DNA of 64,000 nt from Lepidurus packardi (lineage: Eukaryota > Arthropoda > Branchiopoda > Notostraca > Triopsidae), in assembly GCA_023053545.1 (NCBI GenBank), contig JAKZAN010000003.1, forward strand, positions 1,267,501 to 1,331,500, read 5' to 3'. Of the stretch, positions 50,301 to 64,000 are shown one piece after another. Within the stretch, counting starts at the first letter, position 1. Each line of letters starts with the position of its first letter. A program made the position numbers and the translations under genes. The notes beneath the pieces are model-generated. The model had not been told where the DNA came from and searched no databases. It saw only the letters and a program-made list of their open reading frames with translations.

Positions 50301-52163
50301 AGTACCGTGCTCGTCTCCCGCGGAATATACCAAAAAACTGAAAAAGAGACAGCCTCGATCTTTGCGGACTACTTCGCATCCGTCCACAACCACGACATAA
50401 AGTTTGACATACAAGAAAACGAAATCCTAAAAATTCGAGAGGAAACTAAATTCTATATAGATAAAAACAATTGCAATGCAGAAGCTAAGCTGCCAAGAGC
50501 CTTCTCGATATCAGAAATACTAGAAGCTATAAGTGCCCTAAAATAAACTAGCCATGGTGAAGACGAAATCCATAACCTAATAATTAAAACGCTCCCAGGA
50601 AATTGGTCGTTTGCCATCCTAGACATAATTAATGAGAGCTGGTTGACAGGGGAGATCCCTGAGCAATGGAAAACTGCCGTAATCCACCCCATAAATAAAC
50701 CGGGAAAGCCACCAATAGACCCGTCCTCGTACAGACCGATATAACTAGCGTCATGTGTTGCAAAATTAGCAGAGAAAATGGTAAAGAAACGACTCGTGTA
50801 TATACTAGAATCCAAAAATCTACTACCTAATTTTCAGTCAGGATTCAGGCCACGTAGATCCACTGAAGACCAACTATTGAGGATAGTAAACGCTGGAAAA
50901 GAGGCCTTACGAAAGAAAAAATCTTTAGCGGTAGCAGGCTTAGATATCGAAAAAGCTTATGATAGAGTGTGGATAGATGGCCTGTTAGTAAAGCTAGGTA
51001 GGCTAGGGATAACGGGACCCCCTCTAAAATGGCTCGGAAATTACCTAACACAAAGGAAAATCAAGGTCAGAGTCGGTAGTGTATTATCCGACGTGAGGAA
51101 GATAGAAAGAGGGTTACCTCAAGGATCAGTCTTGAGCCCGATTTTATATAACGTTATGACGTATGATTTCCCAAGATGCGAACCCATTTCACCGCCAAGC
51201 AACTTCGCGGATGACATAGGAATATTCGCTGAAGGAAATGACGCTCTGGAGGCGATTAAGAAACTACAAAAGGACATAGTCAAGATTGATCAGTGGTGTA
51301 CAAATTGGGCCCTTACAATCTCACCGGCGAAGTCAAACTATATGCTAGTCACCAGACAAAGGGATTTGCCTAACAAACACCCCCACCTCCAAAACCAAGT
51401 CCTAAACAGAGTTAAAGAACTCAAATTTCTAGGCCTAAAACTGGACCAAAGATTAACTTTTAAAAATCATATTGAACAAGTCAAATTGACGTGTAAAAAA
51501 GACTACAGGGGATCAAAATACTAGCTGGAATTAAATGGGGTGCAACTCCGAGAAGCATACTAAACCTATTTAAAGCTCTCGTAAGATCTAAAATGGAATA
51601 TGGATCGGTGGTGTACAATATAGCCTGTAAAACGATAAAATCGAAACTTGATCCTGTACAAAATGAAGCAACTAGGATAGCCCTAGGCCTATTAAAATCC
51701 TCACCAACACCAGTGATAAATTACCTCTCAGGAATGTAAACACTAGAAACAAAAGAAACTGGGCCTCGATAAAATACTACAAGAAAATAGTGGAAAGGGA
51801 AAATAATGACCCCACGAAACAGGAAGTGTACAACCGAAGATCCGTATATGTCACCATAGTTCACAAAATACTAGACCGGATGAATGTGACTCAACTGAAT
51901 AACCCCACGCCCCATGCTCACCAAAACCCCTGGGATAGGATAATTGTACTAACAAATTTTCCCAGAAGTAGAAATAGTACTGAAACCCGAACACTCTTCA
52001 ACGAGTTAGTAGCAGAGCACTATCAAAATTTCACCCAAGTCTACACTGATGGATCAAAAACAGAACACGGGTGCTCAGGAGCAGCCTGGTTCCCCACCAC
52101 AGGAAACAAAATACAGATAAAACTGGAACATCAGAACTCCATATTCATGGCAGAAGCTATAGT
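47336..52163 (+). mobile_element. I-like LINE with RNase H, decayed, 3' end cut
   Basis: The order is leader, ORF1 with three zinc knuckles, AP-type endonuclease, RT and RNase H. RNase H separates it from the Jockey/R1-like LINEs elsewhere in the window and points to the I group. Coding sequence stops in mid RNase H at 52163, where the Polinton region begins. An upstream 44-codon ORF at 47466-47597 may be leader sequence only. Confidence 0.82.
47672..48882 (+). pseudogene. I-like LINE ORF1 (gag-like), frameshifted
   Basis: ATG 47672 starts MSGQSSGARSRTMEKEKDE, and a similar unit is repeated directly after (GGQSGAAKSNTTEKEKDE), an internal duplication. A Lys/Gln-rich stretch and a helical part follow to a stop at 48334. 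The next frame (48340-48882) has the RRM-like end and knuckles CFKCQKIGHTAKVC, CGFCSSSEHQYAMC and CYNCKGQHTSNASVC. One frameshift near 48335 separates them. Confidence 0.8.
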
Positions 52164-52169
52164 AGTATA
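49112..52169 (+). pseudogene. I-like LINE ORF2: endonuclease, RT, partial RNase H
   Basis: ATG 49112 gives IRIIFWNARNLKQN, then a one-base shift in an A-run near 49210. The endonuclease follows (FIVGDMNANHNSWSEGSPN, GSDHLPVILDIN). RT spans about 50550-51520 (FQSGFRPRRSTEDQLL, GLDIEKAYDRVW, GLPQGSVLSPILYN, catalytic SNFADDIGIF), with stops at about 50546 and 50742. RNase H starts FTQVYTDGSKTEHGCSGAAW and breaks off after MAEAI, before its remaining catalytic residues. Confidence 0.85.
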
Positions 52170-52199
52170 GGTACCACCATTACTGCAACCTCCATTACT

Positions 52200-52294
52200 G
52201 CAGCACCAATAGGAAGCCTCCATTTCCCCCAAGCCCCGCCCCTTTTACGGCTGCACCAATAGGATGCCTCCATTTCTCCCCTAGTCCCCGCCCT
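52200..52294. repeat. Duplicated CCAAT/GC-box unit (about 50 bp x 2)
   Basis: GCACCAATAGGAAGCCTCCA, then CCCCAAGCCCCGCCC, and again GCACCAATAGGATGCCTCCA, then CCCCTAGTCCCCGCCC. The units carry a CCAAT box and a GC box each, like promoter elements. They lie just inside the inferred element end. Confidence 0.7.
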
Positions 52295-52423
52295 GACGCC
52301 TGCGCAGTATGGTTTGACAACACCTAGTCCCTAGCGTTTCCGCCACTTTCACGTTGGCGCTGTCCTCACAATTGAGCAGCTCTCGTGTCGACAACAGTGT
52401 CCTCCGCAAAAAACTTAATTACC

Positions 52424-52578
52424 ATTAAAGTTAAAGACACTTTTTCGGACACGACATTAAAGTTAAAGACACTTTTTCAGATTCGACATTAAAGTTAAAG
52501 ACACTTTTTCAGATTCGACATTAAAGTTAATGACACTTTTTCGGAGATAGACATTTAAGTTAAAGACACTTTTTGTAA
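52424..52578. repeat. Five tandem copies of a 32-bp repeat
   Basis: The unit ATTAAAGTTAAAGACACTTTTTC plus nine bases starts at 52424, 52456, 52488, 52520 and 52553 (period 32, once 33). The last copy is degenerate. It sits in the non-coding left arm of the Polinton-like element. Confidence 0.9.
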
Positions 52579-52811
52579 GTTTAACCTTCGAAATGTATTT
52601 TCTTTCAACAAACACAATTACAAATTTATTCAAAATAATTTTTGGTGGTTTCACTACACTGTAAGATTTTTTTTGGAGAGTGTGCCATCATGCTCATCAG
52701 GCTATCAACTGTTGCACACACACTGATAACACCAACTCACCCACTCTTGCGTTTGCACAACCCCTCTGGCTAGGATGCTTGTCAGCTCACACTCATGTGT
52801 TTGACACCCCA

Positions 52812-53245
52812 TCAAGCTGTGGCTGTTATTGAGTATTCGAGAATACCATATAGTTTTTCATTGGTGCGCACTGTCAAACGTGTCACTTTGCTTTTCAATT
52901 GACCTGACGCATTGTTATAATGTTTGTCAAAAGCATACTCGTTGGGAGAGTCTTTCATTTTTTTTATCACATCGTTTAAAAAATTTTTCTCACCAATATT
53001 TGCTTCACAGTTTTTTCCCCATTGTTTAACTGTTCCATCACAACACTTAGCACTATTTTTAACATAATGTTGGAGTGTTCTTGTCCACATTTTAATATAA
53101 CACTGAGTGCTTCACTTTTGGTATCCATAGCGAATTGTTCTATAGAGAAAAACTTTGGAACAATACAATTTATCGATGGTGAGGGGATGTAGTCGTGATC
53201 GAATGTTGGGTCGATATACAATTCTGCACGAGTTCGCACCCTCAA
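52812..53245 (-). pseudogene. Unrecognised ORF pair, probably one frameshifted gene
   Basis: Minus frames 53245-52976 (VPKFFSIEQFAMDTKSEALS) and 53090-52812 (KNFLNDVIKKMKDSPNEYAF, KSKVTRLTVRTNEKLYGILE) overlap near 53050, as one gene with a single frameshift would. No domain was recognised. It lies between the tandem repeats and another unknown ORF within the element's left arm. Confidence 0.35.
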
Positions 53246-53398
53246 ACTCTTTGTATCTAAAACGAGTTTAGATTATTTATTTGAACATAAACTTTGTGAT
53301 AATAATTACAGTTTGCCGTGATGTTGGAGTAAAGCTTATGCGAGCGTCCACAAGAACTTCATTTATTTGTTATGTAGTAATATTTATTGTTATCACGT

Positions 53399-53470
53399 GT
53401 TACTACGTTTTTGATAACCTTCACAGCAGCACTGTAAATACCAAATTTACCCAAAATGAATTTTAACGTG
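53399..53470 (-). pseudogene. Partial duplicate of the unknown ORF at 53482-53934
   Basis: TGATAACCTTCACAGCAGCA and GTAAATACCAAATTTACCCA here match TGATAACCATTTGCAGCTGC and GTAAATACGAAATTTACCCA at 53855-53900. The matching part encodes residues near the N-terminus of the 53482-53934 protein. A further copy of its start codon region lies at 52660-52700 (minus ATGATGGCACACTCTCC). Confidence 0.5.
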
Positions 53471-53481
53471 TTGAATACATT

Positions 53482-53934
53482 TCAATACATACAAACATTT
53501 ACAGAATTATCGTTGTTAAATGTGCAGGTGTACACAAACATTGGTTCTACAATTTCTGTAGAAGTCCACGTGGATTGCATATAGTCATTCCACAGGAAAT
53601 GATCGGCAACATCCATCGACCAGGTCAGTCCATCATCAAGCAGACATCCGTTAATAGATTGAATAGAAGCGGTCTCACCACCAACGAATAGGTTCACAAG
53701 CATTCTTTGTTGAGAAGGTTCTGGAATAAACCGGAAAGCACAATCTTGCGCGCAAACCCAAATTTCGTTGAAATTGTTGTGAAACACAATCGGATCTTCG
53801 TTACGTATAAATTTAATACATGCTTGACTCGAACTATCACACGTTACAAGACATTGATAACCATTTGCAGCTGCTATGTAAATACGAAATTTACCCAAAG
53901 CAGTAACAAAACTTTTTGGAGTGTGTGCCATCAT
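53482..53934 (-). CDS. Unrecognised Polinton-arm protein, 150 aa
   Basis: ATG 53934 (two ATGs in a row) opens MMAHTPKSFVTALGKFRIYI. The protein has seven Cys (CLVTCDSS, IWVCAQDC, NGCLLDD, FVYTCTF) and an even mix of beta-type segments, so a small folded domain is likely. No family was recognised. Two partial duplicates of its 5' part lie downstream, pointing to local gene duplication inside the element arm. A longer start at a GTG upstream is unlikely in an animal. Confidence 0.5.
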   Translation of the reverse strand: MMAHTPKSFVTALGKFRIYIAAANGYQCLVTCDSSSQACIKFIRNEDPIVFHNNFNEIWVCAQDCAFRFIPEPSQQRMLVNLFVGGETASIQSINGCLLDDGLTWSMDVADHFLWNDYMQSTWTSTEIVEPMFVYTCTFNNDNSVNVCMY

Positions 53935-54039
53935 GCTCGTCGAGCAGTCAACTGTCGCACACGCACACACTCTCTGATAACGCCAGTGCACTCTACACAC
54001 ACACTAGAATGTTCAACGATACCAACTCTTGCGCTTGCG

Positions 54040-54300
54040 CACCCCTCAAGCTGAGATGTTGACCAATCCCCACTCTTCCCTCAACACAACCCTCAGGTTA
54101 GTGTGTTTGACAACCCACACTGTTGCGCTCGCACACCCTCTCATGCAGGAGTGTTGACCAATCCCATTCTTCCATCGACACACCCCTCAGACTTGACTGT
54201 GTGACTACCCCCATTGTTATGCATGCACACTCTCAGGCTAGGGTGTTTGACAACCCACACTCTTGCCCCTGTGCACCCCATCACTGATAGGTCGATAAAT
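54040..54300. repeat. Irregular tandem repeats rich in GTTTGACAACCCACAC
   Basis: GTGTTTGACAACCCACACT(G/C)TTGC occurs at about 54105 and 54245, and GTTGACCAATCCC(C)A at about 54057 and 54152, each followed by CACACCCCTCA-type stretches. Similar motifs lie at 52715-52810. There is no ORF. These precede the promoter at 54354 and may be regulatory. Confidence 0.55.
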
Positions 54301-54353
54301 TCGCTATCTCGCGTCGACACAGTTTCCCCTACCCTTGCAGTCGGCCGATCTTC

Positions 54354-54390
54354 TTTATAAACAGCACACATCCTTTTAAAAGTATTCAGT
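54354..54390 (+). promoter_or_regulatory. Core promoter: TATA box and TCAGT initiator
   Basis: TTTATAAA (54354-54361) lies 32 bp upstream of the A in TTCAGTC (54386-54390 = TCAGT), the arthropod initiator consensus. The first ATG of the downstream gene is at 54413, leaving a 25-base leader. Confidence 0.75.
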
Positions 54391-54412
54391 CAGCTTTCTG
54401 AATTTGATAATA

Positions 54413-55015
54413 ATGTCAAACTCTAACAAGCAGACTGGAGCAGTCTCCAATTCCGGATTTAGAAGCGAGCGTAAATGGCAACCCGTCTACGCTGAAGAAA
54501 GCCCAACCCGTTTTCAAGAGAAGACAGTGCATGTCAAAGGACATTGGCACTGCACACTCCGGAAACCGGCAAAACGTTGGGTGGTGGCAGTAAAAGTGTT
54601 ACGAGCCACCGGAGAGCCGACAACCTATAGCGCCACATACGGTTTTCCAACCGATCATCTCGAGGATGTAATCGATGCGTTGCTAGTACTGAAAGAGTAC
54701 ATCAACAACCAAGAGGACAAGTCTGAAGACTCCGATATTGAAATAGAAGAGGTGTGCCCGCCAATTAAAGAAGACAAGAAACGTACCATTGTCAAAATGA
54801 ACGCTTCCAATACGAAAGTAAAAGAATTCAAGAAGCGCAAGATCGTCAAAATGATGGAAGATTCTGACGCTGAAGTAGAAGAGGCGACACCCACGTTTGA
54901 AGACAAGAAGCATAAACCCGCCATGGTTGAAGACTCTGATGTTGAAATAGAAGAGCATAAGTCAACCAAAGTAAAAGCTGTTGTCAATGGTCGCACTCTT
55001 CGTCCACGTTTTTAA
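54413..55015 (+). CDS. Unrecognised acidic-repeat protein of the Polinton-like element, 200 aa
   Basis: ATG 54413 (MSNSNKQTG) follows a good core promoter. Residues about 20-95 look folded (beta strands WHCTLRKPAKRWVVAVKVL, then helix LEDVIDALLVLKEYI). Residues 100-195 hold three acidic repeats (EDSDIEIEE, EDSDAEVEE, EDSDVEIEE) alternating with Lys-rich segments (KKRTIVKM, KKRKIVKMM). The last residues are RTLRPRF. It is the only plus-strand gene of the element and is convergent with the protease gene. An early, nuclear, chromatin- or DNA-binding role would fit the charge pattern, but that is inference. Confidence 0.75.
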   Translation: MSNSNKQTGAVSNSGFRSERKWQPVYAEESPTRFQEKTVHVKGHWHCTLRKPAKRWVVAVKVLRATGEPTTYSATYGFPTDHLEDVIDALLVLKEYINNQEDKSEDSDIEIEEVCPPIKEDKKRTIVKMNASNTKVKEFKKRKIVKMMEDSDAEVEEATPTFEDKKHKPAMVEDSDVEIEEHKSTKVKAVVNGRTLRPRF

Positions 55016-55113
55016 TAACGGGGTATGCAAATGTCTCTAATAACATAGAGATACACCATCTGTATTGTTTGACATTGTCAGAAATACACTATTTGTATTG
55101 AAATTTGTTTGTA

Positions 55114-55674
55114 TTATTCATCATCATCATACAAAGCTCGACAGGTTTGGTCAGTACACACAATTCGTAGGGGTTTCAATTGTAATCCATATCTTTGTTG
55201 AATTTGCTTTTCAACCCAGCGATCTTGTTGTAAAAGTCGAGTTTTACCGCTATTGCAACGAAAAGGAATTAGAATATTTTTCAAAGAATGATTTCGAGCT
55301 CGCTGTAAAGCCACATAAAGACACCATTGTCCACAAGCGCGCGATGTAGGATGTTGAAGGGTTAAAGGATGGTTTTGCCAGAGGTGCGAACCACACCATG
55401 TGGCAAAGTCCGGATGGTAGCTATGGATGCTTTGACCTAAACTATCGAAAAATTCAACTGGTTGCAGCGGGGTGACAATAGCCGGAACATAAATTAAAAG
55501 CCAATGAACACCCTCATGCTGATGAGGGTGAGTGTTGCAAATAACAAGTAAAGGTTTCCCAGAGTTGGACTTGAGACGAGTAAGATGGTCGCGAGGAATA
55601 ACCCAAGTTTCAAAACCACGTTTTTGAATAACAGGGTCATGACGCAAGATATGATAAAGCTGGCTAGTATTCAT
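55114..55674 (-). CDS. PRO: Adenovirus-type cysteine protease (maturation protease)
   Basis: ATG 55674 gives 186 residues, close to the usual size (about 200). The adenain-type catalytic elements are in order: His in GVHWLLIYV, an acidic residue in VEFFDSLG, and Gln/Cys in LQHPTSRACGQWCLYVAL. It would cleave capsid precursor proteins during virion maturation. It is the last minus-strand gene, 108 bp downstream of the capsid gene. A longer start at a TTG codon is less likely. The frame ends DDDE, like the polymerase (NEDDE). Confidence 0.92.
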   Translation of the reverse strand: MNTSQLYHILRHDPVIQKRGFETWVIPRDHLTRLKSNSGKPLLVICNTHPHQHEGVHWLLIYVPAIVTPLQPVEFFDSLGQSIHSYHPDFATWCGSHLWQNHPLTLQHPTSRACGQWCLYVALQRARNHSLKNILIPFRCNSGKTRLLQQDRWVEKQIQQRYGLQLKPLRIVCTDQTCRALYDDDE

Positions 55675-55782
55675 AGCTAAAGAAATCAAGACTTTTATCC
55701 ACTTCAAAGGTTTGGTGTGTATTGATGATTCAAAGGTTCACTGTCAACAAACATTTGAACCATGAAAACATAACTAATCAAC

Positions 55783-57075
55783 TCATTCAACGAGAATTTG
55801 ACGAGCACTATCAATTTGCAACAAAGAATCTGTTTCGCTAAAAACAATCATAGTTAAAGAATCGACTACTGCTTTAGAAAAGCGAACATCTATTTTCAAA
55901 TTCCCCTCTTTCAACATTCCAAAACCTTCGGTGACGGGAATAATTTGAAAACCGTAAAGACGATAGTACTGTTGGTAAAGTTCACGTTCAAATGATAGTT
56001 CAACCTCTGAGTTCACTAGATTGTAACAATCTAAAAGCGAGTAATAACCCAACAGGTATTCATCAGAACCAACAGGAATACTTGGAAAAGGAACTTCTTC
56101 ATTGTTGAGGGACACGCTTATGGTAGATACATTATGATGTTGAAACAGGTAAGGATTGCTGAGCCAATCACCCATGAAAGCTTTAGTAGGCAAGAAACCG
56201 ATAACTATCCGTCGAGGAACGCGACGCAGGTAGGAATCTTCCACAGTTTTTTGCATGGTGCCAGCAGGTATGGTAAAAGAGCGAACGTCAGTTTTAAGAA
56301 AAGGATATTTGGCTACATTACCCCCCAACAACATTTTCTCCAATCCTAAGCGATATTCAGAATTGAGAGTATGAACTCGCAACACCATTTGAGCTTTTTC
56401 GATAACAACTTTGTAGGAATAAGTCTGTGTTGCAGGTAACGCATTGTGGCTAATCAAGAAACTATCAGCTTGTCGATGTAACCGTAAGACGCAGCTTACA
56501 TCGGGCAGCAACAGTTTGGGACATTGGAATAAATCCACATTCAAGACGCCCATAAGTTCCACTAATTTAGATTTTTCTGTGAAAGTTTTACGCAAAAGAG
56601 ACGAACTACCGGTTTCTATAACGTCAGCATTTTCATCTTTGATGTAGAGAGCAGCAGTACCAAAACTTCGATGATATTCTTCACCATGGCGTAGCAAACA
56701 ATTTAAAAAACTTTTGTAACCGTAATTTTGCCCTGAAGAAGTGACAAGCGTATCGTTGAGATACAGATCAACTTGACTAAAGAGCGAATGAAGCAGATTG
56801 TTGACTGGAAAAACAGAATCTGAATCTGTAATATTAACCCCGTCGCTGCGTACAATTTTAACTTGCGCGTAAAGCTGGGGACGTTCCAGATCCAAAAATT
56901 GGTTGGAGTGGGTGGAAAAATTAAATTCTATAGGAGCTACATTGTCTTTGGATGACGCGCGAGTTTGAACAATAAAATCTTTAGATTGACTAATACCAGC
57001 TTCAGTATGAGGAATACTCAACAAGTCTAGTTTGTCTGAAATGAAAGGTGTGCTACCCTCGCGGATGGTATCCAT
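55783..57075 (-). CDS. MCP: Major capsid protein (Polinton type)
   Basis: ATG 57075, 430 residues, no break. Conserved features of the family are visible: LERPQLYAQVKIVRSDG, FPVNNLLHSLFSQVDLYLND, YGYKSFLNCLLRHG and, near the C-terminus, DCYNLVNSEVELSFERELY and YRLYGFQIIPVTE. Animal-genome relatives are often annotated as F54H12.2-like. Polinton capsid proteins of this set are predicted to fold as double jelly rolls and to form the hexameric capsomers. The start codon directly follows the stop codon of the upstream gene (TAGATG). Confidence 0.85.
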   Translation of the reverse strand: MDTIREGSTPFISDKLDLLSIPHTEAGISQSKDFIVQTRASSKDNVAPIEFNFSTHSNQFLDLERPQLYAQVKIVRSDGVNITDSDSVFPVNNLLHSLFSQVDLYLNDTLVTSSGQNYGYKSFLNCLLRHGEEYHRSFGTAALYIKDENADVIETGSSSLLRKTFTEKSKLVELMGVLNVDLFQCPKLLLPDVSCVLRLHRQADSFLISHNALPATQTYSYKVVIEKAQMVLRVHTLNSEYRLGLEKMLLGGNVAKYPFLKTDVRSFTIPAGTMQKTVEDSYLRRVPRRIVIGFLPTKAFMGDWLSNPYLFQHHNVSTISVSLNNEEVPFPSIPVGSDEYLLGYYSLLDCYNLVNSEVELSFERELYQQYYRLYGFQIIPVTEGFGMLKEGNLKIDVRFSKAVVDSLTMIVFSETDSLLQIDSARQILVE

Positions 57076-57639
57076 CTAACCGAATATATCGGCGGCTGTT
57101 TTTCGTTTAATTGAGCGCTTCTTGACACGAGGTTTTTTACGTTTGACTGCTGAAGATTTACGTTTACGTCCGCTACCTGTTTGATAAGGTGCCACAGCAC
57201 CCGCTAATTTTCGACGAGGACGACGACGACGACGACGAGGTGTTTTCACAACTGTGGTGCTAGACATACTGAGCTGTCGTTGAAGAGGAGTTTTGTTTAA
57301 GAATTGAATGAACCCTTGTCCAACTTGAGCTTTTGCATCGTTGGTGTTGCGTTGCAAAATTTCTTGACCCATTTGTTGTAAACTTTCCATACCTCGAGTT
57401 TTCATGGTGTCTGTCAATTTCTTACCCGATGAGACATCACGAGCCACGTTTCTAACTAGATGTCTGAGCGAGGGTGCTACTAATCCACGGAAAATTGGTA
57501 TTATGTAGCGCGAGAAAAATCCATAACCACGTTGACGGTGGTTGCCTCGATAAAAAGTTTCACCTCCACCACCTCGCTGTTGTGGGTTTAACGCCTTCAT
57601 ATAACATTCAACCGATAAACATCCCTTAAAAGGCGCCAT
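57076..57639 (-). CDS. Basic core-type virion protein (adenovirus core/minor protein-like)
   Basis: The best start is ATG 57639, giving 187 residues. The N-terminal part has a glycine run and RGNHRQRGYGFF, then FRGLVAPSLRHLVRNVARDV and GKKLTDTMKTRGMESLQQMG, a layout seen in adenovirus-like core/minor proteins. The C-terminal half is strongly basic (KTPRRRRRRPRRK, KKPRVKKRSIKRK) and ends AADIFG. DNA condensation in the particle is the likely role. The gene overlaps the penton gene by 14 bases and touches the capsid gene. Confidence 0.72.
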   Translation of the reverse strand: MAPFKGCLSVECYMKALNPQQRGGGGETFYRGNHRQRGYGFFSRYIIPIFRGLVAPSLRHLVRNVARDVSSGKKLTDTMKTRGMESLQQMGQEILQRNTNDAKAQVGQGFIQFLNKTPLQRQLSMSSTTVVKTPRRRRRRPRRKLAGAVAPYQTGSGRKRKSSAVKRKKPRVKKRSIKRKTAADIFG

Positions 57640-58495
57640 GAGAGCGAACTCGTTGTAGATGTAGTATAGCCGACACTGTCCCAGCTTGGAATAAAACAGG
57701 TAGACCAGTACCTGTCTTAATATAGATGTGAATTGTATCAATGTAACCTCGACTAAGGGGGATATAGTAATTGTGATTAAAACTAACTGAGACTAGGTCA
57801 CCCTCTCTCATTTCGGTGGAAAGAGGGATGGTGCGTAAAAGAGGAGCGCTGGTATCCCCCACGAAACTCGATTGTATAATATCACAATAAACGTATAAAT
57901 TGTGAGCACCACTTTTCAGATCTGGTGTTAGACTCGAATTACATTCCCCACGACCTTTGACCACCCGTAATTTGTCCTGATCCATGAACCCTAAGATAGC
58001 TTTAACCCGTGCCGGTAAAATAATTTCGCAAGCTTCCAAATCGGAACTCGGGGGTAGTTTCAAGCTCACTGTTTTCTTTTTGTCACGGTAAACAAATTCG
58101 ACTCTCCGAGATTTATCCAATAGAGTCGGAAACATACGGTCAAGACCACTGTTGAGATCGCTCACCAACCGATCTATAGAATCGTACACTTCCAAATTGT
58201 GTAAATTGATTTTAGTTAGCTCTTCCTTCGATGAAATTTCTACTACTTCTTTGGTTAAACCATCAGTCTGTTTTTTAGATTTGATTTCACTGTGTGCAAT
58301 CATAAAATTCTCTTCTTCGCTTAAAGTATGCATACTGTTCACAAATAGAAATTCCACCAAAGCCACCTCATACTCATCTACAGGGACATGTATTGGTTCG
58401 CACAATAGAGTTCGATAATTACTCATAGTATTATGAGGATAATGCGACATGGATGAGTTAGAAGGTAACGTGATATACTTTTCATTGTGGGTCAT
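57626..58495 (-). CDS. Penton-type minor capsid protein
   Basis: ATG 58495, 289 residues, open. Family-typical pieces are YITLPSNSSMSHYPHNTMSN, PVDEYEVALVEFLFVNSMH, PARVKAILGF, LYVYCDIIQSSFVGDTSAPL and VSFNHNYYIPLSRGYIDTIH. Such proteins form single jelly rolls at capsid vertices. The start overlaps the integrase stop (ATGA, 58492-58495), and the end overlaps the core gene. Confidence 0.83.
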   Translation of the reverse strand: MTHNEKYITLPSNSSMSHYPHNTMSNYRTLLCEPIHVPVDEYEVALVEFLFVNSMHTLSEEENFMIAHSEIKSKKQTDGLTKEVVEISSKEELTKINLHNLEVYDSIDRLVSDLNSGLDRMFPTLLDKSRRVEFVYRDKKKTVSLKLPPSSDLEACEIILPARVKAILGFMDQDKLRVVKGRGECNSSLTPDLKSGAHNLYVYCDIIQSSFVGDTSAPLLRTIPLSTEMREGDLVSVSFNHNYYIPLSRGYIDTIHIYIKTGTGLPVLFQAGTVSAILHLQRVRSHGAF

Positions 58496-59700
58496 GGTGA
58501 CTGTCGACTAGATCGCATGCGACCCGAATACAGATTGCTGGGAGGTTTTAAAGTCTTCCGTGTGCGGACAAAGTCTTGCCAGAAAGGTGTTAACTCTCGA
58601 GCGTTTACCCAAGTATTGAACTCGGTTGGCCAACCTTTCCATGTTATATAGTACTCGGTCTCACCCACCGAGTTGCAACGTTGTTTGAGCACTTTTTCGA
58701 TGGGGTACAAAGCTTTAAAGTTAGGTGGCGCCACATGGGTTAATTCAATACCGTAAAATTGACCAATAATATCTTCATTTTGGAGATCAACTAAATTGTA
58801 AGTTACAGGTTGAGTAAGATTCACCGTTTCAATCTTGTATATCTCGTATGTGTTTTGAACAATATAGCCTTTATTAAAAAATGGTTTTGTATCGTTTTTA
58901 ATCCGTACGTAATCACCTACACTGAAGGTGGGCTGACGAGTTTTAACAGCTGCACTGCGCATCTTATGAATATGTCGAGCTACCTCATCTTGGTTTTCCA
59001 CGGTGACTTCCACAGGAGCCCGACCAATGGTTCGATGGTAACTCCGATTGTAGTTATCCACTAATTGTGGCAACACATCTATGAAACGTTCGGTATGATG
59101 TTGAGTCATGTAACGCGAGATTCGCTCTAGGAGGGTGCGATGGACTCGTTCCACAATCGGTGCTTTAGTTTCTTGAGTCCGAGTTAGATAAAATTTGACA
59201 CCTACGTCTTTAAGATATTTTTGGAACGCGTGATTGAGAAATTCTGTACCCTGATCCGTGTTGAAATGTTTGGGTATTAATCTTGTGTTTGTAATATGTT
59301 GTTGTAAGGTTGCGAGTACAGTAGGTCCAGTCTTGTTGGAGATAGGATAGACCCAGAGATAACGACTATGAACATCAATAATAGTAAAAAGAAAGTTCAT
59401 TCCATTATTCATTCGACTCCAGCGTTGTACATCAACCAAATCAGCCTGCCAAAGATCATGAAGCGTAGAAGTGATTACATATCGACGTGGAAAGCGACGA
59501 GGATTGTTCCGATGTAGAGTATAACTATTAAGATAGCTCAAAGCTTGGCGGGCGGTGGTAAGGTTAATATTAGCGGCTTTCGGGTATTGCTGTTTGGCGT
59601 AACGCAACAAACGTTGTAAACCACCATAAGCACCCAAAGACGAAGGATCCGTATAGAGTTGATGCCAATCGTCTCGAGTAAGCCATGTCTTTTCTACCAT
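58492..59700 (-). CDS. INT: Retrovirus-type DDE integrase with chromodomain
   Basis: ATG 59700, 402 residues, open. The catalytic triad is D87 (WQADLVDV), D149 (FNTDQGTEF) and E184 (APIVERVHRTL), with the exact 35-residue spacing of DD35E enzymes. A C-terminal chromodomain (about residues 335-385: YPIEKVLKQR, EYYITWKGWPTEFNTW) could steer insertion to modified chromatin. The enzyme would insert the element and make 6-bp target duplications, as known for Polintons. It follows the upstream ORF by one base. Confidence 0.95.
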   Translation of the reverse strand: MVEKTWLTRDDWHQLYTDPSSLGAYGGLQRLLRYAKQQYPKAANINLTTARQALSYLNSYTLHRNNPRRFPRRYVITSTLHDLWQADLVDVQRWSRMNNGMNFLFTIIDVHSRYLWVYPISNKTGPTVLATLQQHITNTRLIPKHFNTDQGTEFLNHAFQKYLKDVGVKFYLTRTQETKAPIVERVHRTLLERISRYMTQHHTERFIDVLPQLVDNYNRSYHRTIGRAPVEVTVENQDEVARHIHKMRSAAVKTRQPTFSVGDYVRIKNDTKPFFNKGYIVQNTYEIYKIETVNLTQPVTYNLVDLQNEDIIGQFYGIELTHVAPPNFKALYPIEKVLKQRCNSVGETEYYITWKGWPTEFNTWVNARELTPFWQDFVRTRKTLKPPSNLYSGRMRSSRQSP

Positions 59701-59701
59701 T

Positions 59702-60562
59702 TCAAACTAAATTTTGCCACTGAGGACTTGATCCAGCTCGAGCGCGTTTATACGATCGGGTGACTCTAGGGCTGGGTGGAGTGATACCGCGCGAATGGAG
59801 CAGTTTCAAACGTTCAATCTCTTTTAGCCGTTTCTCTTTAACAATAAGCTGGGTGGGAAAATTAATATCGGCTAACGCGCGTGAAAAATCATCCATTCGA
59901 GGTAAAAAGCGACCCTTGTTGTGTGAAAAGAGATCTCTCATGTAATCTGACACATGGCTGTTTTCTATAGTTTCCCCATATAGTTTTAGAGTACTGTCAG
60001 GATTAACTGTAATTATGTGTGCATATTCAGGTTTTGTAAGATACTCGCTAGCTGTCAACGCTTTCTCACGATATTGGTCGTCCACTTTAACCATAAATTG
60101 GGTAACGCTGGGGGTCTCTTCAACACTTGACTGCAATGGACTATCATACATGTCGGGTTTAGAAATGTTATTAATCGGTGTTTGAAAGGGTTGTGGTGAA
60201 AAGCTGCGAGTGTGGTTTACACGTGTGGGTGTTAAATCACTCTCAACACCCTCATGTTTTAAAGATGGAACCGTGGGAACAGGGGGTAAAGAAACATGTG
60301 TTGACGATGCAGCCCTCTCATGACCTGGGTGAGCAGCCTTGTAGCGTTGAAACGTTTTTTCAAACAGGTGCAACTTATTCTCAATGCTTAATTCAGGATT
60401 ATTGAGAATATTCCGCATTTCCTCTTCCGCCCGATAAAATTCTGTTAGTTTGAAACTGGGGGGCGGTTTTATGGCAGACTGCGATTCCCGATGCAAAACT
60501 TGATCAATTTTGTTGGCTATGTCTAGCGGCACTAACCGCATGGGACGCGCTGCTTTGGCCAT
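59702..60562 (-). CDS. Unrecognised Polinton protein, 286 aa
   Basis: ATG 60562 (MAKAARPMRLVPLDIANKID). A helical region with EMRNILNNPELSIENKLHLF and KTFQRYKAAHPGH resembles a recurrent unnamed protein of Polinton-like elements. The middle is Pro/Ser-rich and disordered. The C-terminus has RMDDFSRALADINFPTQLIV, a Lys/Arg helix and a basic end. It overlaps the next upstream ORF by 59 bases in another frame. Its function is unknown. Confidence 0.75.
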   Translation of the reverse strand: MAKAARPMRLVPLDIANKIDQVLHRESQSAIKPPPSFKLTEFYRAEEEMRNILNNPELSIENKLHLFEKTFQRYKAAHPGHERAASSTHVSLPPVPTVPSLKHEGVESDLTPTRVNHTRSFSPQPFQTPINNISKPDMYDSPLQSSVEETPSVTQFMVKVDDQYREKALTASEYLTKPEYAHIITVNPDSTLKLYGETIENSHVSDYMRDLFSHNKGRFLPRMDDFSRALADINFPTQLIVKEKRLKEIERLKLLHSRGITPPSPRVTRSYKRARAGSSPQWQNLV

Positions 60563-60881
60563 GGCGACGTAAAAAAGCTAAAGCGGGGTTAAGTACGTTT
60601 AAAATAAATCCTCCACCCTTCTGTACTATTCGTTTATGACGATAGCGGAAACTCTGTTTGGATTGAGCCAAATCTCGAAGAATAGACTTGAAACGACGTA
60701 GCTTTTGTTTCTCTTTTTCCTGAAGAGGGATAACACCCTTGACTAAATTCAAGATGATTTCGCAAATAACGTTAATAAGGGGTCGGTCAGCGTTCTGAAG
60801 GATAATTTGACGGAGTTTGGGCTGACAGCGACATAAAGTTTTCAAATAAGGTTTGTATTTCTTCACCTGTTTAAGACACAT
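60504..60881 (-). CDS. Unrecognised small helical Polinton protein, 125 aa
   Basis: ATG 60881. The protein is helix-rich and basic: VKKYKPYLKTLCRCQPKLRQ, NVICEIILNLVKGVIPL, EKQKLRRFKSILRDLA, HKRIVQKGGGFILNVLNPAL. Proteins with this KR-QKGGGF ending recur beside capsid genes of Polinton-like elements. The short hydrophobic C-terminal stretch could touch a membrane. No function is assigned. Confidence 0.72.
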   Translation of the reverse strand: MCLKQVKKYKPYLKTLCRCQPKLRQIILQNADRPLINVICEIILNLVKGVIPLQEKEKQKLRRFKSILRDLAQSKQSFRYRHKRIVQKGGGFILNVLNPALAFLRRHGQSSASHAVSAARHSQQN

Positions 60882-60927
60882 CCTCTCGTTGTCTGTTTAC
60901 CTCCAAAGCCAGTGTGCGACTAAAGGT

Positions 60928-61071
60928 TTACCCACTCGAAGATCGCACTTTAAAGGCTAAAATAAGACGCGTCATAATCGACAACCATTCAGCTAGAGTT
61001 TGAAGGGTTTGCGTGGCAACCTGTCGACAGCGAGTGCGCCATTTCTTCCCAAATCTTTTATCATGAACCAT
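60928..61071 (-). CDS. Small basic ORF, 47 aa
   Basis: ATG 61071 to TAA 60928. The N-terminal half is very basic (KRFGKKWRTRCRQVATQT) and is followed by an amphipathic helix (LQTLAEWLSIMTRLILAF). It fills the gap between the polymerase and the next ORF, which is otherwise non-coding. Its position and charge suggest a real small protein, but this is inference. Confidence 0.35.
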   Translation of the reverse strand: MVHDKRFGKKWRTRCRQVATQTLQTLAEWLSIMTRLILAFKVRSSSG

Positions 61072-61132
61072 CTTGCAGCTTCAAAGGTTGAGTGACAACT
61101 AAACTAGACATGGGTTATAGACACAATTTAAA

Positions 61133-61139
61133 CTTTATT
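61133..61139 (-). promoter_or_regulatory. Polyadenylation signal overlapping the polymerase stop codon
   Basis: Minus-strand AATAAA (61139-61134) includes the TAA stop of the polymerase gene. This suggests a separate 3' end for the polymerase mRNA, upstream of the structural genes. Confidence 0.5.
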
Positions 61140-64000
61140 CATCATCTTCATTACAATATCCGTAAGCGTGACTGGTAACAAGATCTGGGAGCCAGAAACG
61201 TTTATCATCAAGAGCAGACAATGACAATTTACGAGTTTGATAAGTATAAATTTGATGGTTGAATGAGCGGAGAGTGGTATTGGTAGTATATACCTCGCTG
61301 CGCTCACCATACAACACTTGACGGTAAAGGTCTAACGATAATTCACGACGGGTGGCTTCTCGGGTAGTGCCCTTGGCCTTTCGTTGTTCTTCACCCGTGT
61401 CAAAACGTATACAATAGAGTTTGGGTCGTAAAGCTACAATTTCCACAATACGGTTTTGTCCAGCCTCGTTCTTAAACATGCCTAGACGTTTATCGTTGTC
61501 AGCATAGTAATATGGACTGGATGGATGTTGGTTGGAGGTATCAAAGTGGGTGGTTAGACGATGACACATCTCTTCCCAGAATCCGGTAGGGCTTTCCACA
61601 CTGTAGCAAAAACTGTCGGTATCGGTAAAAACCAAGCGGCAGCGCGAACCAAAATGTGGGCGAATAATGTTGTAGTGGAAATCGTACATATGCATTTTGG
61701 CTAATTCCAATATTGCAAAACCTACAAGAATTGGTTTGTTATAAAAAACGTCGGTTTTTCTCATCTGGATGAGTGCTAAATCATTCGAAATGCGTCGTGC
61801 ATGGCTGAAGGCTGGACTGGCTGTTAAACTCACAAGAGTTTTCTCGTTGTTTATTACGTAGATGTTGACTCGGTTGTCTACGTTTTCTACAGTTTTACCT
61901 GAAATGTTAACCGAAGGTTAGTCAAAAGTATGAGTTTAAGTTAGAATGATTTTACCAAAGATGGAATTATTCATCAGTTTGAACGATTCACGATCAGCGT
62001 CATTGGTGGCGGCAGCTCGCAAAGCGGTGTTGCATTCGATGTAGGGCTGAAACAGCGTTGTCTGACGAAATCTGATACCACCATGCATTCGGGTCACTAA
62101 CAATCCGTGACTTAAAGCCAGCTGCAACATTCTGTAATGAATCAGATATTTTTCTTTAGCGTTTAAGGTGACACATAGTTTTTCAACACGAGAGGGAAAT
62201 GTTTTCCCATCCTTCAGATAATGCTCTTGGATTGCGGGGCTTAGCATATCCCATGTTATTTGTTCTTTGCGGGGGAGAAAGGGAAAATCGTCGTGTTCTT
62301 CGTGTAAATGGGCAGGATATTCCATGTCGACTAGTAGGGCATAACCATAGAGCGAATCTGGGGTTAACGAGAGGATTTCGTTCAAACTGGGGCATTCTTT
62401 GGTTGATAACCAGCAAATTCCATCGGTGGGTAAAGCTTGAACCATCGCCCATCCATACAAGTTGTTAGCATCGATATATTCGATGGAGCTATTAGGGCGT
62501 GTAGGATCATAATGTGGCAAGTCTGGTAAATTGGCTACAGCATGACGTTGGGACACCATGGTTAGCCCCCCTCGCACGTTTTGTTTAACCATACTATGCA
62601 TGGTTACATCGGTCATAAGTTCCATCGTCACCCCCGTTGTGTACAAACAGGCGTTCCAGCTAAAATGCGAAATGCTGTAAAAATGGGCTACATCCAAACC
62701 CGAATGGTGATAGGTTGTTTGACGTAAGGTGGAAAAGCAGTCGGCTAGAATGCGGACATCGCACTCTAAATACAAGTTGTGATAGTCGCGTAATGTGCGA
62801 CATTGGAAAGTATCCCAAACGTTTTGTGCATGAATGTAATCCTCATCTGAAACTGAGCAACCAGTTAGGGTGGAGAAAAAGGCCAGTTGGGATGGTAAAT
62901 GTGGTAAATCGAGAGCTGTCAGACTAGTCATGAACTCGTAGGGAAATATCCCTTTGCGCGCTAAGAGTTTGAGTTTCTCTTGATTCCCCGCTACCGCAGC
63001 CGCACGGTTCAAACATTGAAAGGAGTGGAGCCCCTTTTTCAAGAGAACTTGAGCCCAACGTTCCAAACTAGTGTTCATAAATTGAAGACTGTCCAGAAAG
63101 CGAACGTTATCAACTTTAAAAGTCAAGAACTTTTCCATGGATTTGGGGATAATGTCAATGTCTTGCCCGTAATGCTCCAATGCTTGACAGATGAAATGTC
63201 CATCGTAATTCCTAGAAACAACAGATTATTTGGATTCGGTTTATCGGTTTTCACAGATACTTACTGTAAATTGTGGAAGTAGACAGGTAATTCGTAGTTT
63301 TCCAATTTACAATGGAGATTACAACCTCGGTGAGCAATACCCCGGAAAGAACCGTCAAAATGATCATGATCTATCATACGCTCGGACAAATCTTGGGGTA
63401 AGGGTTTCTTGCAGTGTACGCATATAGTAGCTGTATGTCGGGCTCTTATTGCCATTGACACATCTTTTTCATTGAGGGGAAAATTTGTTGAGCGCACCAC
63501 TTGTTCAAGATTTGCTGCTGTTTCTAAGATGTTTTGTAGGAAAATCTGACCTGCATTAGGGCCAACATAGCGCTGGTATGCCACTTCACTCCCCTGCAGG
63601 TCGAGCACCAAATAACAAAAAGATAGAGCTTCGTGACGATGAAGCTTTTGATTGACGGGAGAGTGTTCTTCATCAGTTGGATCATAAGAAACTAAAAGAG
63701 ATTCAAAATCGGCAAAAGCTATGTAAGGGGCACGTTGTGCTGCATTAAAACATCGCATCTGAACAAAATCGTTCTTCCCAGGAGTGGGGAGTCGAACTGC
63801 TTTTTGTTTGTTTTCCAAACAGTACATTTTATGAGCATCTAGGGACCGGGAACTTTTAAACGCGTTTAGACATTTGAGACAATAATGATCCTTATGTAGT
63901 TGATCTTTACCCAACAAACGATTTGGTGAAAGAATAGGCCAGAAATGTCCTTGTCCCGGACCGGTGCATGTATACAAAAGATTAACCGGTTCTTGGCAGA
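61135..64000 (-). CDS. POLB: Protein-primed DNA polymerase B, three exons seen, N-terminus outside window
   Basis: Exons are >64000-63265, 63211-61956 and 61898-61135. They are separated by GT-AG introns of 53 bp (63264-63212) and 57 bp (61955-61899) that each rejoin the frame. The first exon has a C2H2-like finger (CLKCLNAFKSSRSLDAHKMYC), ExoI motif AFADFESLL, and an HNH/treble-clef-like insert (CVHCKKP, MIDHDHFDGSFRGIAHRGC). The second has polymerase motif A (YIDANNLYGWAM) and most of motif B. The third completes motif B and has motif C (VFTDTDSF, 61613-61630). It replicates linear protein-primed genomes. No stop lies within the exons. Confidence 0.92.

What the first reader, a model, noticed from the sequence alone, without database searches (positions are those of the whole stretch)
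52164..64000. Apparently intact Polinton/adintovirus-like element with virus-like gene packing
Capsid, penton-type, core-type, protease, integrase and protein-primed polymerase genes all lie on one strand with open frames. Spacing is extreme for an animal genome: integrase and penton overlap by ATGA, penton and core overlap by 14 bases, the core stop is immediately followed by the capsid ATG, the 286-aa ORF and integrase are one base apart, and the two small ORFs overlap by 59 bases. This implies polycistronic or reinitiated translation from a shared mRNA. The open frames suggest recent activity or selection, possibly an integrated virus.
Basis: partly seen in the sequence, partly recalled or inferred. 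Interest (0 to 1): 0.88.

Follow-up and report, generated by a model that had tools for sequence, protein, structure and literature searches.

The report
Recently spread, capsid-coding Polinton family
This is a complete virus-like jumping element (a Polinton, also called Maverick or adintovirus) that has spread recently to dozens of places in an animal genome, with the main genes still open in most copies; the kind is known, but its DNA polymerase gene appears to carry two introns, which the relatives described in the papers consulted here lack.

Summary
The element runs from window 52161 past the window end to C16:1336438 (16,778 bp), with inverted termini AGTAGT//ACTACT, a perfect 6-bp target duplication inside a LINE, and the missing packaging ATPase beyond 64000. 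The capsid model is a double jelly-roll like those of Sputnik, mavirus and PBCV-1; the penton model resembles mavirus penton. The integrase ends in a chromodomain with an HP1-like aromatic cage. A 601-bp probe finds 35 places, 98-100% identical, and capsid, integrase and ATPase genes are open in most copies: a recent burst. One correction: the polymerase is not a single open frame. Its two breaks have the features of short GT-AG introns (53 and 57 nt); 30 of 39 genome matches carry the whole two-intron stretch, 99-100% identical. 17 of 35 copies lie on one repeat-rich contig holding 1.9% of the genome; other integrases are enriched there too, but less (5 of 44). Selection on capsid genes between copies is weak, so a virus life cycle is suggested, not shown. 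The gene order is usual for the family; whether the overlaps are could not be tested. A new member of a known kind; the novel part is the spliced polymerase.

The parts
52155..52160 (.). left 6-bp target-site duplication AGCTAT, inside a LINE; partner at C16:1336439-1336444 (beyond the window)
   Evidence: LINE reverse transcriptase to the left (RVT_1 4.1e-33), zf-RVT 1.1e-4 and RNase H 3.5e-4 to the right, both under their curated cut-offs
52161..52577 (.). left terminal inverted repeat: AGTAGT end, about 262 bp, then 32-bp tandem repeats whose number differs between copies; right partner ends at C16:1336438
52795..54926 (.). variable accessory block (172-aa ORF 53482-54000 minus, and most of the plus-strand ORF); absent from some copies, where only about 65 bp lie between terminal repeat and sequence from 54927 on
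   Evidence: L050, L059, L060, L061 in the part of the output shown; output was cut
54413..55015 (+). 200-aa ORF on the opposite strand with acidic repeats, no family
55114..55674 (-). adenain-type cysteine protease candidate (186 aa from the first ATG); H, D and C motif by eye and recall only
   Evidence: no Pfam, PDB-sequence or PHROG match
55783..57075 (-). major capsid protein, double jelly-roll, 430 aa
57076..57639 (-). core/PW-position protein, 187 aa, basic by eye
57626..58495 (-). penton (minor capsid), 289 aa
58492..59700 (-). rve integrase, 402 aa, with C-terminal chromodomain (residues 334-378)
   Evidence: Pfam rve 1e-16, Chromo 7e-8; PFV integrase and HP1/CDYL matches
59702..60562 (-). 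286-aa ORF, no relatives found
60504..60881 (-). 125-aa ORF, no family
61135..61898 (-). polB exon 3
61899..61955 (-). polB intron 2, 57 nt, GT...TTTCAG
   Evidence: present in 8 of 8 copies read, the window's own included
61956..63211 (-). polB exon 2 (Pfam DNA_pol_B_2)
   Evidence: PF03175 2.1e-11
63212..63264 (-). polB intron 1, 53 nt, GTAAGT...TTTCTAG
   Evidence: read in the window copy only, other copies by match span
63265..64000 (-). polB exon 1, 3' part (endonuclease VII-like region); its ATG lies at C16:1332695 (window-equivalent 65195). The ATPase lies beyond, plus strand, C16:1332792-1333415

Best explanation
A complete, recently amplified Polinton/Maverick (adintovirus-like) element. 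Inferred cycle: the polB and ATPase transcripts start from the 96-bp region between the two divergent genes, and polB mRNA is spliced. The protein-primed family-B polymerase copies the linear DNA from its inverted ends. The rve integrase inserts it with a 6-bp target duplication, and its HP1-like chromodomain steers it to silent, repeat-rich chromatin. Capsid, penton, core and protease genes form the tightly packed virion module, expressed from shared or overlapping minus-strand transcripts. Shown: anatomy, both ends, target duplications, capsid and penton folds (as models), copy number, open genes, intron anatomy. Inferred: priming, splicing, heterochromatin targeting, protease identity, virions.
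Against: No transcript, particle or extrachromosomal DNA was examined. Selection on virion genes between copies is weak: P 0.016 pooled over eight genes, MCP 0.026, but penton 0.23, core 0.45, protease 0.67, integrase 0.64; variants shared by several copies are no more constrained than single ones. By the DNA criterion the penton is open in 24 and the protease in 23 of 30 loci. The protease rests on a motif seen by eye. Other integrase-type elements are also enriched on C16 (5 of 44), so part of the skew is a general property of that contig.
Confidence: 0.87

Rival explanations
1. A transposon that moves inside the germline and no longer needs virions; the capsid genes are open only because the burst is young.
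For: Copies differ by under 2.2% in the four virion genes, so unused genes would still look open; weak selection signal, none in protease or integrase; no gap between shared and single variants.
Against: MCP and penton show the lowest pairwise pN/pS (0.45 and 0.32) and MCP variants lean to synonymous (P 0.026). Mavericks of cyprinid fish show strong purifying selection on core genes (PMC8097293, passages).
Confidence: 0.4
2. The polymerase breaks are lesions in a founder, and the family now spreads on polymerase supplied by another copy or element.
For: No version without the breaks was seen among the 39 matches (judged by spans and identity, not by reading each).
Against: Both stretches have GT-AG ends with pyrimidine-rich acceptors; exon lengths add to 3,951 bases, a multiple of 3; the residues on either side meet in contiguous polymerase motifs, judged by eye and recall.
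Confidence: 0.06
3. Polycistronic mRNAs with termination-reinitiation express the late module.
For: ATGA, stop-ATG abutment and 14-base overlap; core and MCP starts lack a purine at -3, as reinitiating ORFs may.
Against: No RNA data. The 125-aa, 286-aa, integrase, penton and protease starts have a purine at -3, so each could be the first ATG of its own transcript; alternative splicing or nested promoters fit as well.
Confidence: 0.35
4. Enrichment on C16 is not targeting but survival in gene-poor DNA, or local duplication.
For: The C16 window is dense in mobile elements by eye; 5 of 44 distant integrase-type matches also lie on C16, about sixfold over its share; some C16 copies sit in duplicated or inverted segments.
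Against: Several C16 junctions have different flanks, i.e. are separate insertions. Polinton copies exceed the other integrase elements (16 of 34 against 5 of 44, Fisher P 0.0007); two neighbouring TE families have no other match on C16 (0 of 8 LINE, 0 of 39 Gypsy-like), though close copies are few.
Confidence: 0.4

Closest known systems
Vertebrate Mavericks (PMC8097293; passages, section 7)
   Same: Order integrase - minor capsid - PW - MCP - protease; 12.7-24.6 kb, mean 16.9 kb (here 16.8); terminal repeats in the same size range; ends of the (AGT)2//(ACT)2 type; 6-bp TSD; accessory regions outside the core.
   Different: There polymerase, ATPase and PZ form a module usually on the other strand, and intact elements have no introns; here polB is on the same strand as the virion module, only the ATPase is divergent, and polB has two intron-like breaks.
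Sf Maverick 1 and 2 of Spodoptera (PMC5803895, section 11 part 1 of 2)
   Same: A32-like ATPase, rve integrase with chromodomain, PolB with endonuclease VII-like region; about nine ORFs, eight in tandem.
   Different: Their POLB is a single large ORF of about 3.5 kb (1162 aa aligned); here 1316 aa predicted from three exons.
Adintoviruses as defined in PMC11071296 (passages)
   Same: rve integrase with C-terminal chromodomain; PolB with a long N-terminal extension; hexon and penton. Penton model matches a Drosophila-associated adintovirus 2 protein (4.9e-10).
   Different: OTU-like N-terminal domain of PolB not recognised by the libraries used; no reference hexon was compared.
Mavirus virophage (solved MCP and penton)
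   Same: MCP and penton folds.
   Different: Sequence identity only about 10% in the structural alignments; mavirus depends on a giant virus of a flagellate (recalled).

Membership tests
Polinton/Maverick | retrovirus-like rve integrase | tested here: met
   PF00665 1e-16; PFV integrase
Polinton/Maverick | family-B polymerase of the protein-primed (B2) type | tested here: met
   PF03175 2.1e-11 on exon 2; priming itself untested
Polinton/Maverick | long terminal inverted repeats | tested here: met
Polinton/Maverick | 6-bp target-site duplication | tested here: met
   6 of 7 elements with both ends fetched, the window's included; the seventh has inverted identical flanks
Polinton/Maverick | A32/FtsK-like packaging ATPase | tested here: met
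   PF04665 1.9e-6, 28.0 bits against a cut-off of 22.8
Polinton/Maverick | double jelly-roll major capsid protein | tested here: met
   model and fold matches
Polinton/Maverick | single jelly-roll penton | tested here: met
   model matches mavirus and adenovirus penton
Polinton/Maverick | adenovirus-type cysteine protease | tested here: inconclusive
   right place and a motif by eye; no Pfam or PDB-sequence match
Adintovirus | integrase with C-terminal chromodomain | tested here: met
Adintovirus | PolB with N-terminal OTU-like domain | tested here: inconclusive
   433-aa first-exon piece has no Pfam or convincing PDB-sequence match
Adintovirus | hexon reciprocally recognisable with adintovirus hexons by BLASTP | not tested
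   no named adintovirus hexon was in hand; relatives at up to 33% identity over full length are mostly unnamed
Adintovirus | virions | not testable with these tools
   needs microscopy or particle sequencing

The most novel reading that the evidence does not exclude
The element places its polymerase under control of the host spliceosome. Reading through intron 2 ends the protein a few residues after a conserved polymerase motif, so cell-type-specific splicing could limit replication to certain tissues, as P-element splicing does in Drosophila (recalled). Together with a heterochromatin-reading integrase this would be a DNA virus-like element with a built-in germline or tissue switch and a homing preference that has loaded half of its copies onto one 2-Mb block.
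Probability: 0.12. Interest if true: 0.75.

Novelty: new member of a known kind. Interest (0 to 1): 0.45.

Why it matters
Whether Polintons are viruses or transposons is a standing question; a young, many-copy family with most core genes open in a small animal genome is a good place to ask it by looking for particles, extrachromosomal linear DNA and spliced transcripts. Introns in a Polinton polymerase, if confirmed by RNA, would show dependence on host splicing and give a simple RNA marker of activity. The chromodomain plus the skewed copy map makes insertion targeting testable.

Tried and rejected
Relatives in IMG/VR: four scans (MCP; MCP alignment; a metagenome MCP; polB exon 2) found none, so conservation of the ORF overlaps in relatives could not be tested. 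The 286-aa ORF gave no relative. PHROGs gave one weak unknown hit, for penton. Sequence searches of PDB for MCP, protease, polB exon 1 and 2 pieces and ATPase gave nothing useful. Host identity: one COX1-like nuclear copy reads under table 5 with one stop; I judged it crustacean-like from memory only and do not rely on it. Idea that the polB breaks were lesions: held less likely than introns. Idea that shared variants would be more constrained than single ones: not borne out. Idea that C16 is not a general sink for mobile elements: only partly right, since other integrase-type matches are enriched there too (5 of 44). Literature on introns in Polinton polymerases: searches (listings), and passages of PMC12721341, PMC12220804, PMC6431247 and PMC3671162, showed no report of spliceosomal introns in an animal Polinton polB. 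Other listings (one search found no paper) were not read through. The 2021 adintovirus paper is not held, and the nematode Maverick paper was not seen, only a meeting note about it, so such introns may already be known.
Full report
What is there. The element begins at 52161, where AGTAGT follows the 6-bp sequence AGCTAT, and ends beyond the window at C16:1336438, where ACTACT is followed by AGCTAT again. Its length is 16,778 bp. Both flanks look like parts of one LINE: reverse transcriptase on the left (RVT_1 4.1e-33), zf-RVT and RNase H on the right (1.1e-4 and 3.5e-4, both under their curated cut-offs), so the insertion split a retrotransposon.

Gene content. On the minus strand, in order of transcription, lie polB, a 125-aa ORF, a 286-aa ORF, integrase, penton, core, capsid and protease. 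On the plus strand, with 96 bp between the two starts, lies the ATPase. Pfam supports integrase (1e-16), chromodomain (7e-8), polymerase (2.1e-11), an endonuclease VII-like region (8.9e-5, just under its cut-off) and the A32-like ATPase (1.9e-6). The capsid protein had no Pfam or PDB-sequence match but has 40 relatives at E up to 1e-3, best 33% identity over its full length, mostly metagenomic with a few from animals. A model built on 32 sequences (pLDDT 82.7) matches double jelly-roll capsids of iridovirus, Sputnik, PBCV-1 and mavirus. The penton has 48 relatives, and its model (34 sequences, pLDDT 88.1) matches mavirus and adenovirus penton and a Drosophila-associated adintovirus 2 protein. 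In Patella caerulea the penton and capsid relatives carry neighbouring protein numbers (SNE40_021173 and SNE40_021174), which fits a conserved module. That Polintons code for both capsid proteins is known (PMC4028283, abstract and passages).

The polymerase is split, and the splits look like introns. The polB frame breaks twice. At 63264-63212 there is GTAAGT...TTTCTAG (53 nt), and at 61955-61899 GTAAAA...TTTCAG (57 nt). The three exons sum to 3,951 bases, 1,316 codons plus stop. By eye, the residues on either side meet in polymerase motifs. Intron 2 is present in 8 of 8 copies read, the window's own included. Of 39 genome matches to the 1,541-bp two-intron stretch, 30 cover it whole at 99-100% identity. 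Since an intron is kept in all copies read, spread was through DNA. [quoted passage not shown] My literature searches found no report of such introns, but they were not exhaustive.

Copies. A 601-bp probe finds 35 places, 32 of them over the whole probe, all 98-100% identical. The capsid search gives 42 matches, of which 27 span all 430 residues without a stop; a few fragments are more diverged (identities of 62-97%). In the 30 loci fetched around capsid matches, capsid is open in 28, core in 28, penton in 24 (found in 28) and protease in 23. Integrase has 41 matches of at least 93% identity, 29 full length, 27 of these without a stop; the other 44 of 85 listed are distant elements at 30% identity or less, and only 103 of 334 candidates were scored. 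ATPase has 33 matches, 26 full length, 25 of these without a stop. The terminal repeat gave 68 candidates; 40 were scored and all 40 matched. Among 30 fetched ends, seven pairs could be taken as the two ends of one element: six have perfect 6-bp duplications and the seventh is flanked by inverted identical DNA. Pairs far apart or with two copies between them were not counted. C8 and C46 probably hold the same region twice, so the copy number is inflated by about two.

Selection. Pairwise pN/pS is 0.45 for capsid, 0.32 for penton, 0.76 for core and 0.80 for protease. Against a neutral expectation built from the observed mutation spectrum, P is 0.026 for capsid, 0.23 penton, 0.45 core, 0.67 protease; with 8 copies each, 0.64 integrase, 0.37 the 286-aa ORF, 0.33 the 125-aa ORF and 0.10 polB exon 3; all eight together 0.016. 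After leaving out the two C46 duplicates, variants shared by two or more copies (35 nonsynonymous, 17 synonymous) are not more constrained than single ones (54 and 32). This weak signal fits recent virion-dependent spread but does not prove it.

Where it sits. 17 of 35 copies lie on C16, 2.05 Mb of a 108.6-Mb assembly; without the window's own copy, 16 of 34 against 0.64 expected. Controls: two neighbouring mobile elements have no other match there (0 of 8; 0 of 39), though only 2 LINE and 5 Gypsy-like matches among these are close and near full length. But 5 of 44 distant integrase-type matches do lie on C16, about six times its share, so the contig is a general sink to some degree. The Polinton still exceeds that (16 of 34 against 5 of 44, Fisher P 0.0007), and its excess survives an assumed tenfold density (P 0.0002). 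The chromodomain aligns with HP1, CBX7 and CDYL, with aromatic residues at the three cage positions (which positions form the cage is recalled). Heterochromatin targeting by chromodomain integrases is known for retrotransposons (title in the reference list of PMC5803895; not read). Targeting here is an inference; retention in gene-poor DNA is not excluded.

Expression. The order of the virion module is the one reported for vertebrate Mavericks; whether its overlaps are typical was not testable here. The core and capsid starts lack a purine at -3, while the 125-aa, 286-aa, integrase, penton and protease starts have one, so reinitiation at the first two is possible. Without RNA this stays open.

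Variation. Copies differ in the outer regions. In at least four ends (L050, L059, L060, L061) the block 52795-54926 is missing (the output was cut). The number of 32-bp repeats in the terminal repeat also differs.

Verdict. A recently active Polinton/adintovirus-type family with most core genes open in most copies: a new member of a known kind, with an intron-bearing polymerase as its distinctive point and a copy map that makes targeting testable.

Noticed in passing
C16:455918-470846 (G000; L070, L071, L078-L083): One element copy is flanked on both sides by the same DNA in inverted orientation: 1.45 kb compared from each junction with 2 mismatches, and identical 401-base samples about 3, 8 and 20 kb out. 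Either a real palindrome formed through the inverted termini or a misassembly joining two haplotypes.
   Followed up: partly
C16:1603392-1632107 (L076, L077): Two element copies in the same orientation within 28.7 kb, with identical inverted flanks over the 1.45 kb compared.
   Followed up: partly
C1:11430572 and C1:11652047 (L068, L067): Two terminal repeats 221 kb apart with identical inverted flanks over the 1.45 kb compared.
   Followed up: no
C16:1677449 (L062): An element end lies inside what looks like the ATPase gene of another copy (the ATPase match C16:1676962-1677492 breaks there).
   Followed up: partly
C16:1695187-1702468: Two integrase copies in head-to-head symmetric positions around one capsid gene, an inverted-dimer-like arrangement.
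   Followed up: no
C8:54317-63492 and C46:136294-143590: In both contigs the polB match is split at query position 58, i.e. at the 5' end of intron 1, by 9.1 and 7.2 kb of other DNA; an insertion at the splice donor.
   Followed up: no
C8:66155-146469 and C46:146252-208218: These contigs carry matching element copies, one pair with the same 1.45-kb flank (1 mismatch), so they are probably alternative haplotypes of one region.
   Followed up: partly
C52:160321, C43:162713, C214:60865 (L009-L011): COX1-type genes open under the standard code, probably bacterial contigs in the assembly.
   Followed up: no
C6:697216-698424 and other COX1 matches: 38 of 41 COX1 matches carry standard-code stops; the one translated reads under invertebrate mitochondrial code 5 with one stop: probably nuclear copies of mitochondrial DNA.
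   Followed up: partly
window 1-52000: Dense mobile-element remains with long open frames (LINE-, BEL/Pao-, Gypsy- and DNA-transposon-like by eye).
   Followed up: no
L017:2853-3233 (+), L017:3498-3941 (-): Two accessory ORFs of 126 and 147 aa between ATPase and right terminal repeat, no family in Pfam or PHROGs.
   Followed up: partly
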